From: Tunturiibacter empetritectus
GTDB lineage: Bacteria; Acidobacteriota; Terriglobia; Terriglobales; Acidobacteriaceae
DNA: 64,000 nucleotides
Direction of reading: 5' to 3'
Assembly: GCF_013410875.1 (NCBI RefSeq)
Contig: NZ_JACCCU010000001.1
Location: 806,001-870,000, forward strand
Under the pieces are notes generated by a model. It worked only from the letters and a program-made list of their open reading frames with translations, searched no databases and was not told the origin of the DNA. Position numbers and translations under genes: made by a program. Below are positions 5,516 to 58,132 of the stretch, one piece after another. The stretch's first letter is position 1, and each line of letters starts with the position of its first letter.

Positions 5516-5570
5516 TCCTGCCTACAACGCGTCATCTGGCTCAAACCCCCATCAACCACCTACAAGGCGT

Positions 5571-5636
5571 CATCTCGACCGAAGCAGCGAACAGCTTCAT
5601 CATTCGTTGCGCAGTGGAGAGACCCCCGCGTTTGCT
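5571..5636 (+). repeat. Dispersed intergenic repeat, copy 1 (gaccgaagc...ggagagaccc type)
   Basis: The stretch gaccgaagc...aacagc...gcgcagtggagagaccc...cg.gtttgc matches, at roughly 70% by eye, the reverse complement of 60161-60240 (gaccgaagc...aacagcgcggagagaccctcgcatctgc). No protein-like frame fits both copies. Between here and 5761 (AT-richer DNA) I see no gene; a 41-codon frame at 5726 is not convincing. Confidence 0.5.
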
Positions 5637-5761
5637 TTTCTCCAGGTCTGGACAAAGCAATTTTTCGCTGTCAAGCCCCTATCAAAGCTAAATCCATGCA
5701 ACCAAACCACATAGACGTGGCGTATGAGTTATATCAAAAAGCTTATACTGGAATTAGATCG

Positions 5762-5950
5762 AGAAAGCCCCGGACGAAACCGAGGCTTTCTTGCGAAAGA
5801 AACATCACAAACGCCCGTAACTCCTTCGCCTGCACGAATCTGCACGTAACTCATTTAGAATGAGGTTTTTGCAGGCCAATGATGCGTCTAAGTATATGAT
5901 AATAAAGGATTTGCGCGCGGGTAATAGGGGGGGGGGTGCCCCTGTCAGGG
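5762..5950 (-). other. Structured intergenic element, copy A (C-rich block, A-rich units, terminator)
   Basis: Read on the minus strand from 5950 to 5762: a block gacaggggcaccccccccc, then tattacccgcgcgcaaat, an A/T-rich stretch ending ttagacgcatcattggcc, then tgcaaaaacc...gagttacg and gtgcagattcgtgcaggc followed by gaaggagttacgg, and finally a hairpin gcctcgg-tttcgt-ccggggc flanked by agaaa/tttct. The same ordered blocks occur at 13071-13253 on the plus strand. The element follows, on the same strand, the sigma / anti-sigma / Spy-like operon that ends at 5981, so it could be that operon's 3' untranslated region. Confidence 0.6.
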
Positions 5951-13005: not shown

Positions 13006-13070
13006 GTCTGGTGACAACTGGATCTGCCGTCTGCATGATGTCTCTGGCAACGTCTTATCTCCTCTCTCCT

Positions 13071-13253
13071 GGTGTAGGGGTACCCCCCCTATTACCGGCG
13101 CGTAAATTGCTTATTTTCAATAATTTAGACGAAAGCATTGTCCGTAAAAATGAGATAACAAAGGGCTTACCCGCAGATTCCTGCAAACAAAGGAGTTATG
13201 GCTGATTATTCGTCTTAAACGCAAAAACTCCACGGGTTTCGTGGAGCTTTTTG
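13071..13253 (+). other. Structured intergenic element, copy B
   Basis: The same ordered blocks as copy A (5762-5950, minus): ggtgtaggggtacccccc, tattaccggcgcgtaaat, an A/T stretch ending ttagacgaaagcattgtcc, gtaaaaatgag...gcttaccc, gcagattcctgcaaac plus aaaggagttatgg, then the terminator hairpin with a gggtttcgtg loop. Positions conserved between copies are concentrated in these blocks. It follows the manC / phosphomutase / HAD operon on the same strand. The atggctgattattcg frame at 13198 is not conserved in copy A (acg instead of atg), so it does not look like a peptide gene. The rest of 13006-13370 shows nothing else. Confidence 0.6.
13223..13253 (+). terminator. Rho-independent terminator inside element B
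   Basis: ctccacg (13228-13234) and cgtggag (13240-13246) form a perfect stem with a gg ttt loop, preceded by five A and followed by cttttt. It ends the manC operon about 220 bp after its last stop codon, or a separate small RNA. Confidence 0.75.
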
Positions 13254-13370
13254 TTCCTTTGCTTCAATTATAGAGGATTGAGGGTAACTGATATGCCACG
13301 CCGATATCGTTGAATACGCTTGCTTTATGCGCTTAAGGGGGTTGACAGCGATTTTTGCCACTCTTCTTCT

Positions 13371-57892: not shown

Positions 57893-58030
57893 TCCCCCCT
57901 CCGCCTCCCCCCAGGGGGTATTTTTGGAATAAGTCTTTTATTTTCTGTTACTTGCAGGGAATGTGTGGCTGTAAAATATTCCATCTAAAGGGGTTGCTTG
58001 CAAAATATAGACGATAAGAGGGTTATGTCT
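57893..58030 (+). other. Intergenic element C, related to A and B
   Basis: Begins with a C-rich block (tccccccagggggtattt in part), then A/T-rich DNA, then ggctgtaaaatattcc / atctaaaggggttgctt and gcaaaatatagacgataa / gagggttatg. The last two are of the same kind as the tgtaaaa...aaaggagttatg units in A and B. It lacks the terminal hairpin and aligns only loosely. The remainder to 58132 is plain. Confidence 0.4.
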
Positions 58031-58132
58031 AGATGGGGTTGAACGGTGGCCCTCTGTGGACAACTACTTTGTCAAGTATCCCCTAATTTTTTGATTAGGC
58101 TTCGTTTAGCGAACTTCGTTTAGCGGGCTTGT

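What the first reader, a model, noticed from the sequence alone, without database searches (positions are those of the whole stretch)
5762..5950. Two homologous ~185-bp structured elements ending in a terminator (A and B)
Copy A (minus) and copy B at 13071-13253 (plus) share, in the same order, a C-rich block with ggggcaccccc / ggggtaccccc, tattacc.g.gcg.aaat, ttagacg..a.cattg.cc, gcagattc.tgca, aaggagtta.gg and a hairpin with a ggtttcgt-type loop and T-run. The internal part looks like about 30-nt A-rich units. Both follow an operon on the same strand. No protein frame is conserved. This could be a family of 3' untranslated elements, small RNAs or a mobile repeat.
Basis: seen in the sequence. 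Interest (0 to 1): 0.7.

Follow-up and report, generated by a model that had tools for sequence, protein, structure and literature searches.

The report
Dispersed one-way DNA start sites
Chromosomes of the soil bacterium Edaphobacter carry about fifty conserved 280-base DNA elements, nearly all lying along the G-rich strand, with a strong strand bias that on average rises on one side of them; they likely mark start points for one-way DNA synthesis, which would be new for a bacterial chromosome.

Summary
A and B are two of 49 near-full copies of a ~280-bp element in this genome; 35 of 37 genomes of the genus have it, and of 24 others one gives a marginal hit. Orthologous copies keep family-conserved columns (7% changed) while the least conserved drift (45%). 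It is not a structured RNA: only the optional middle hairpin, a two-way terminator, shows compensatory change. Core and tail behave as double-stranded DNA sites. Unexpectedly, the genome is a mosaic of strong GC-skew domains independent of gene strand, and the element's plus strand is the G-rich one in 145 of 149 copies, 47 of 47 here. Over 1.66 Mb, skew averages +0.20 on the tail side and +0.04 on the core side; 0 of 2000 matched controls reach that difference. I propose directional, origin-like start sites of DNA synthesis. The association is shown; the mechanism is inferred. No initiator was found, 19 of 33 skew onsets lack an element, loci without an element are often skewed too, and outside this genome the step is weak (8 of 11, p=0.08).

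The parts
13067..13354 (+). Element B, whole (core, terminator, tail)
   Evidence: model R1 hit 176 bits, positions 6-283 of 284
13077..13096 (+). B left end: GGGGTACCCCCCC-TATTACC
   Evidence: located; conserved alignment
13098..13131 (+). B core unit 1 (family-wide mostly inverted relative to units 2 and 3)
13142..13171 (+). B core unit 2
13173..13200 (+). B core unit 3
13223..13253 (+). B terminator hairpin with T run
   Evidence: family-wide compensatory change
13267..13273 (-). B -10-like motif on minus strand (TATAAT)
   Evidence: pattern at fixed spacing; coordinates; no sigma-70 -35/-10 pair by consensus scan
13285..13300 (-). B conserved box, reads TGGCATATCAGTTA on minus strand
13337..13356 (+). 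B right end GGGGGTTGACA + T-rich
5666..5945 (-). Element A, whole
   Evidence: model R1 hit 164.7 bits
5920..5942 (-). A left end, C-rich block
5885..5918 (-). A core unit 1
5845..5875 (-). A core unit 2
5816..5843 (-). A core unit 3
5762..5792 (-). A terminator hairpin
   Evidence: the simple scan did not report it
5743..5749 (+). A -10-like motif (TTATACT on plus strand)
   Evidence: no sigma-70 pair
5716..5731 (+). A conserved box, TGGCGTATGAGTTA on plus strand
5666..5679 (-). A right end GGGGCTTGACA
57930..58052 (+). Third copy, core only, no tail detected
   Evidence: R1 hit 44.7 bits, positions 42-147

Best explanation
A and B belong to a family of about fifty ~280-bp DNA elements per Edaphobacter chromosome that nearly always lie with their plus strand on the G-rich strand and, on average, at the upstream edge of strand-bias domains, and each is predicted to be a start site for one-directional DNA synthesis. 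Shown: dispersed copies, constraint at fixed loci, no RNA structure outside the terminator, rigid spacing, match of orientation to local skew, and an average step in skew at the element in this genome. Inferred: a still unidentified initiator binds the three ~28-nt core units and opens or nicks the DNA near the tail (conserved TTGACA); synthesis then runs core to tail, the plus strand is repeatedly exposed as single strand, and cytosine deamination there leaves it G- and T-rich for tens of kb. The few kb of skew on the core side could be end resection or imperfect positioning. The terminator would only insulate a convergent neighbour gene.
For: Orientation equals G-rich strand: 145 of 149 copies (47 of 47 in G000; the 149 include orthologues, so are not independent), also when both called neighbour genes lie on the minus strand (38 of 38). 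In 1.664 Mb contiguous DNA: right 0..12 kb +0.202, left -15..-3 kb +0.040, right>left 22 of 25, 0 of 2000 matched controls; without the one weak tail-only hit, 24 of 24 agree in sign (circular shifts: maximum 23) and the difference is 0.160 (shift maximum 0.117 of 2000). 14 of 24 elements sit at an independently called onset; random oriented positions give mean 6.1, maximum 14 of 1000. T>A on the tail side in 24 of 25. Skew is independent of gene strand (48% of coding bp on plus in domains >+0.15, own gene calls) and sits in third codon positions and intergenic DNA. At recA loci, strong skew is a trait of this genus as the element is: 1-kb windows with |skew|>0.2 are 17% of 108 in the genus, 1% of 100 in other genera. 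recA skew is -0.12 to -0.15 where the nearby element is minus (G000, G002, G014, G032) and +0.13 to +0.20 where it is plus (G030, G036, G033) (weak, see against). Constraint in situ.
Against: 19 of 33 called onsets have no element (several mirror a sign flip). Three of 25 show no step (C1 750238, 1395517, 1622752) and two almost none (534062, 1599838); the 4 kb on B's core side are as skewed (+0.22) as its tail side. One weak tail-only hit (C3 286059) is opposite to the skew. Outside G000, right>left only 8 of 11, p=0.083. recA is positive in 16 of 20 genomes with no element in the fetched locus (-0.11 to +0.29), so plus is the usual sign; G025 keeps -0.11 without element A; G018 has a same-sense element 1.7 kb off but recA +0.07; the HAD gene is G-rich in 19 of 21 genomes without B; G012 and G013, with no detected element, are skewed too. 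No exact DnaA box (11 of 149 with one mismatch, shuffled 3). Candidate initiator or nicking families are not genus-wide: RPA 8 of 37, not G000; Y1_Tnp 28 of 37; Relaxase 5 of 37, G000 only below the cut-off; Y2_Tnp 11 of 37, not G000. Skew begins 2-4 kb on the core side.
Confidence: 0.38

Rival explanations
1. Polar reading sites: the elements do not start anything but are read in one direction by a fork, recombination or segregation motor (as Chi, KOPS or Ter are), and selection keeps them aligned with an existing strand asymmetry.
For: Complete orientation match in G000 (47 of 47); constraint at fixed loci; rigid double-stranded architecture; skew at recA and HAD also without an element.
Against: Does not by itself explain the average step at the element, nor why the asymmetry is a mosaic of both signs along one chromosome.
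Confidence: 0.24
2. An ancient transposable element that could insert only into exposed single strands: orientation records the strand that was exposed, and copies were later co-opted.
For: Repeat family with subfamilies; three site-like units at one end; presence/absence differences at A and B (G029 lacks both); a decayed copy (L152).
Against: No TIR, no TSD; no near-identical paralogues in the sample; no autonomous copy seen in the G000 or G014 hit lists, which score 150 candidates each; position at onsets is unexplained; strong constraint in situ.
Confidence: 0.15
3. A gene-boundary transcription module: a leftward promoter in the tail plus a two-way terminator, bound by a regulator at the core; skew alignment is secondary.
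For: -10-like TAYAMT at a fixed 13-nt spacing from the box in 33 of 33 places, control 0; plus-strand terminator in 72 of 83 copies with a left gene running toward the element and 35 of 62 with one running away; left gene mostly within ~150 nt; an ORF lies between tail and core in L149.
Against: No sigma-70 -35/-10 pair in A or B; neighbour genes look functionally unrelated by eye; cannot explain the 145 of 149 orientation match or the skew over tens of kb.
Confidence: 0.13
4. Structured non-coding RNA or 3' UTR family.
For: Follows genes on the same strand in 85 of 147; terminator hairpin covaries.
Against: No clear compensatory change elsewhere; no Rfam match; covariation between units 2 and 3 is of identical bases (A-A/T-T, A-A/C-C), not complementary ones; the tail lies beyond the terminator.
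Confidence: 0.03

Closest known systems
REP/BIME, BOX, ERIC, Correia-type intergenic repeats (features recalled)
   Same: Dispersed, intergenic, genus-level repeats, about 50 per genome, often at gene ends
   Different: No TIR or TSD, no young copies in the sample, columns conserved at orthologous loci, orientation tied to GC skew
Replication origins with iterons (plasmid or secondary-chromosome type; recalled)
   Same: Three A-rich ~28-nt units at rigid spacing plus a -10-like motif; asymmetric base composition starts nearby on average
   Different: About fifty per chromosome, directional, no exact DnaA box, no Rep-type initiator identified (RPA tested)
oriT or rolling-circle nick sites (recalled: CTTG^A-type nick motif)
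   Same: Conserved cTTGACA at the tail end; the exposed strand would be the one seen G/T-rich
   Different: No genus-wide Relaxase, Y1 or Y2 HUH protein
Polar chromosome sites: Chi, KOPS, Ter (recalled)
   Same: Orientation aligned with strand asymmetry
   Different: ~280 bp composite instead of a short site; on average at skew onsets; both orientations mixed along one chromosome
Bacteria with multi-polarity skew plots proposed to have several origins (Xia 2012, PMC3269012, passages read)
   Same: Multiple changes of skew polarity along one chromosome
   Different: There Wigglesworthia, Wolbachia, Synechocystis and Mycoplasma pulmonis, without a linked sequence element in the passages read; here a GC-rich soil bacterium with a defined element

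Membership tests
Rfam structured RNA families | score above family gathering cut-off | tested here: not met
   window: only two tRNAs; five element loci at E<=1: none
Structured RNA (any) | compensatory base changes in stems | tested here: not met
   eleven segment pairs other than the terminator, one of them a control: z -2.4 to +3.1 on either strand (control -0.3 and -2.1); terminator z -13.8 and -15.1
MITE/IS-derived repeat | terminal inverted repeats and target duplications | tested here: not met
   73 copies: best 10-mer match 6.84 within versus 6.74 permuted; TSD 2.89 versus 3.07
MITE/IS-derived repeat | young near-identical copies or an autonomous partner | tested here: not met
   best same-genome identity 72% in G000, 81% in the whole 149-copy sample; no core-transposase-tail copy in G000 or G014 hit lists (150 candidates scored each)
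Replication origin | DnaA boxes | tested here: not met
   0 exact; 11 of 149 with <=1 mismatch against 3 in shuffled copies, a slight excess
Replication origin | onset of strand asymmetry at the site | tested here: met
   on average and one-sided in G000; 14 of 24 at a called onset; other genomes 8 of 11, p=0.083
Replication origin | DNA synthesis starts there | not testable with these tools
   needs marker frequency or 5'-end mapping
oriT / rolling-circle origin | cognate HUH nickase present | tested here: inconclusive
   PF01797 28 of 37, PF03432 5 of 37, PF04986 11 of 37 genomes, so none is genus-wide; other HUH families not tested
Iteron origin | iteron-binding Rep protein | tested here: inconclusive
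   PF10134 8 of 37, not in G000; Rep_3 and others not tested
Chi/KOPS/Ter-type polar site | orientation aligned with strand asymmetry | tested here: met
   145 of 149
Chi/KOPS/Ter-type polar site | recognised by RecBCD/AddAB, FtsK or Tus | not testable with these tools
   needs biochemistry

The most novel reading that the evidence does not exclude
Edaphobacter chromosomes are copied, or over-copied, from some fifty dispersed one-way origins, each set by one of these elements, giving a bacterial chromosome a eukaryote-like patchwork of replicons written into its GC skew.
Probability: 0.2. Interest if true: 0.97.

Novelty: categorically new. Interest (0 to 1): 0.82.

Why it matters
One origin per bacterial chromosome is the norm, and irregular skew plots can be put down to rearrangement or gene transfer (PMC4403523, part 1 of 2 read; PMC3269012, passages). 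Here a defined, conserved element goes with the sign and, on average, the start of skew domains that do not follow gene strand, and recA skew differs in sign between genomes in which recA and the HAD gene still lie 7-14 kb apart in the same sense (e.g. G000 and G033). Whatever the mechanism, this makes the question of what writes strand asymmetry into bacterial DNA testable: delete or move one element and watch one domain.

Tried and rejected
RNA structure: RNAalifold on both strands, mutual information, stem scan, permutation test: only the terminator. Hairpin CGCCA..TGGCG in the tail: no clear excess over permuted partners (z +0.2 and -2.1). Tail box as a fourth, inverted unit (my idea): rejected, 1 of 149 tails scores >5 with the unit profile. 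Autonomous transposon: none seen in G000 or G014 hit lists. Regulon: left-gene products of G000 copies look unrelated, e.g. MnmA, Dxr, RibD, PanB, FabF (named by eye, no family search). Plasmid or phage origin: no match of B in plasmids, of A in phages; a tail pattern with 15 fixed bases hit 20 viral contigs, neither opened nor weighed against chance. Second element family at empty onsets: only repeats, REP-like by eye, shared among some. Replichore explanation: both signs alternate along one 1.26-Mb stretch. Detection bias: no group of weaker, opposite copies. Literature: searches showed no paper on such elements or skew domains in Edaphobacter; listings only, except PMC4403523 (part 1 of 2), PMC3269012 and PMC3174227 (passages).

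Full report
Observation. Copies A and B are present as described. The same element occurs many times in the genome. A sequence-only profile of 16 copies (R1) gives 49 hits at E<=1e-13 spanning at least 200 of 284 positions in this 5.07-Mb genome, plus fragments; 150 of 398 first-look candidates were scored, so this is a lower bound. G014 has about 65. Of 37 genomes of the genus, 35 have hits under strict filters (none in G012, G013); of 24 genomes outside it, one has a marginal hit (E=0.008). A tail pattern with 22 fixed bases, scanned over the species-genome collection, hit 33 stretches, in records titled Edaphobacter lichenicola, Acidobacteriaceae bacterium (KBS 89 and a BOG isolate) and Granulicella sp. 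S190; the genus name rests on those records.

Anatomy, in element orientation. A C-rich left end (GGGGTACCCCCC in subfamily 1; TACCCCCTCCCCCC..GGGGTATTTT in subfamily 2). A core of three A-rich units of ~28 nt at steps of about 41 and 30 nt; units 2 and 3 are direct repeats, and unit 1 is mostly inverted (71 of the 83 copies, of 149, that score >5). A variable middle, often a hairpin terminator. A tail with TATAG, TAACTnATACGCCACG and GGGGCTTGACA. On the minus strand the tail reads TGGCGTATNAGTTA then TATAMT: 33 matches in the genome, all inside elements or fragments listed, all with the same spacing although the pattern allowed 9-15, control 0. From AACT to TTGACA the distance is 56 nt in 101 of 139 parsed tails. 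The tail looks like a -10 motif with an unusual upstream box, but a consensus scan finds no sigma-70 promoter in A or B.

Not RNA structure. Permuting partners between copies shows clear compensatory pairing only for the middle hairpin (z -13.8 plus strand, -15.1 minus strand); eleven other pairings, one a control, lie between -2.4 and +3.1. A strong long-range signal in the core is agreement of identical bases between units 2 and 3, as repeated protein sites would give. Plus-strand terminators are commoner when the left gene runs toward the element (72 of 83) than away (35 of 62), so they look like local insulation.

Constraint. By flank similarity I found 110 orthologous pairs in 29 groups, 25 with a G000 member. 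With one pair per group, family-conserved columns differ in 140 of 2005 comparisons (7%), the least conserved columns in 1246 of 2782 (45%). Copies within a genome are far apart (best 72% in G000, 81% in the sample). So individual copies are held at their loci. A and B are missing in G029, and A in G025.

Strand asymmetry. Flanks of the elements, elements removed, have G>C on the element's plus strand in 145 of 149 copies and 47 of 47 in G000, whatever the neighbour genes' strands; orthologues are among the 149. In the window skew is -0.17 before A (minus), +0.20 after B (plus) and +0.28 after the third, core-only copy, but the 4 kb on B's core side are already +0.22. The chromosome is a mosaic of domains with 2-kb skew up to 0.46 and sign changes. 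In domains above +0.15, 48% of coding bases are on the plus strand, and third codon positions carry the skew in both senses (+0.44 and -0.54), with +0.18 in intergenic DNA (864 kb, my own simple gene calls). This points to a physical-strand process rather than coding or transcription. It is stronger in this genus than in its class, as far as recA loci tell: |skew|>0.2 in 17% of 108 one-kb windows at 28 loci of the genus against 1% of 100 at 26 loci of other genera.

Position. Over 1.664 Mb contiguous (25 hits), oriented skew is +0.20 in 0..12 kb on the tail side and +0.04 in -15..-3 kb on the core side, right>left in 22 of 25 (p=5e-6; 16 of 19 above 60 bits); none of 2000 random sets matched for local skew reaches the difference. 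Without the one weak tail-only hit, 24 of 24 agree in sign and none of 2000 circular shifts reaches the difference. 14 of 24 elements are at one of 33 called onsets (random oriented positions: mean 6.1, maximum 14 of 1000). The rise starts 2-4 kb on the core side, peaks at 4-10 kb on the tail side and falls to about +0.11 at 40-60 kb. T>A accompanies G>C in 24 of 25, as C-to-T change on the plus strand would give.

Against. 19 onsets have no element. Several elements inside long domains show no step. Other genomes, where only short flanks were at hand, give 8 of 11 (p=0.083). At recA, skew follows element sense in seven genomes, but these are related, 16 of 20 genomes without an element in the fetched locus are positive anyway, G025 without the element is negative and G018 does not fit; the HAD gene is G-rich in 19 of 21 genomes without B; and G012 and G013, without detected elements, are skewed too. 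So the element is tied to the skew in this genome, but causation is not shown.

Mechanism. A start site for one-way DNA synthesis explains polarity, one-sidedness, decay, independence from genes and in-place constraint together. Whether it is an origin opened by a protein on the three units or a nick at the conserved TTGACA end (TTGAC in 16 of 16 copies, at the expected place in 147 of 149) is open; the likeness to CTTG^A-type nick sites is recalled, not tested. Four candidate protein families are not genus-wide, and there is no exact DnaA box. The main rival is a polar site kept aligned with an asymmetry that something else makes.

Noticed in passing
G000 C1:406001-1670000 and C3:1-400000: Mosaic of 10-100-kb GC-skew domains, many with a sharp onset and a gradual end, both signs, independent of gene strand where tested; became the core of the report.
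   Followed up: yes
G000 C1 ~716k, 760k, 907k, 976k, 1100k, 1183k, 1500k; C3 ~205k, 246k, 284k, 320k, 360k: Sharp skew onsets without a detected element; several share REP-like ~55-bp repeats. There may be a second type of site.
   Followed up: partly
L149 1886-2470 (G000 C1 ~588k): A minus-strand ORF lies between core and tail of one element, starting just downstream of the tail.
   Followed up: partly
L150 (G000 C1 ~567k): An element lies upstream of a leftward gene whose start reads like a cold-shock protein (by eye).
   Followed up: no
window 5555-5632: Repeat, REP-like by eye, between recA and element A; related pieces beside elements in other genomes.
   Followed up: no
G000 C3:286058-286321 (L155): Two tandem tail-only pieces oriented against the local skew, the one exception among the 25 hits.
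   Followed up: partly
L152 (G000 C2 ~338k) versus L182 (G002): Decayed copy: a core remnant where the orthologous G002 locus has a full element.
   Followed up: partly
L076 (G025, recA locus): Where element A would be, G025 carries about 800 bp of other sequence that looks like an extra gene (by eye).
   Followed up: no
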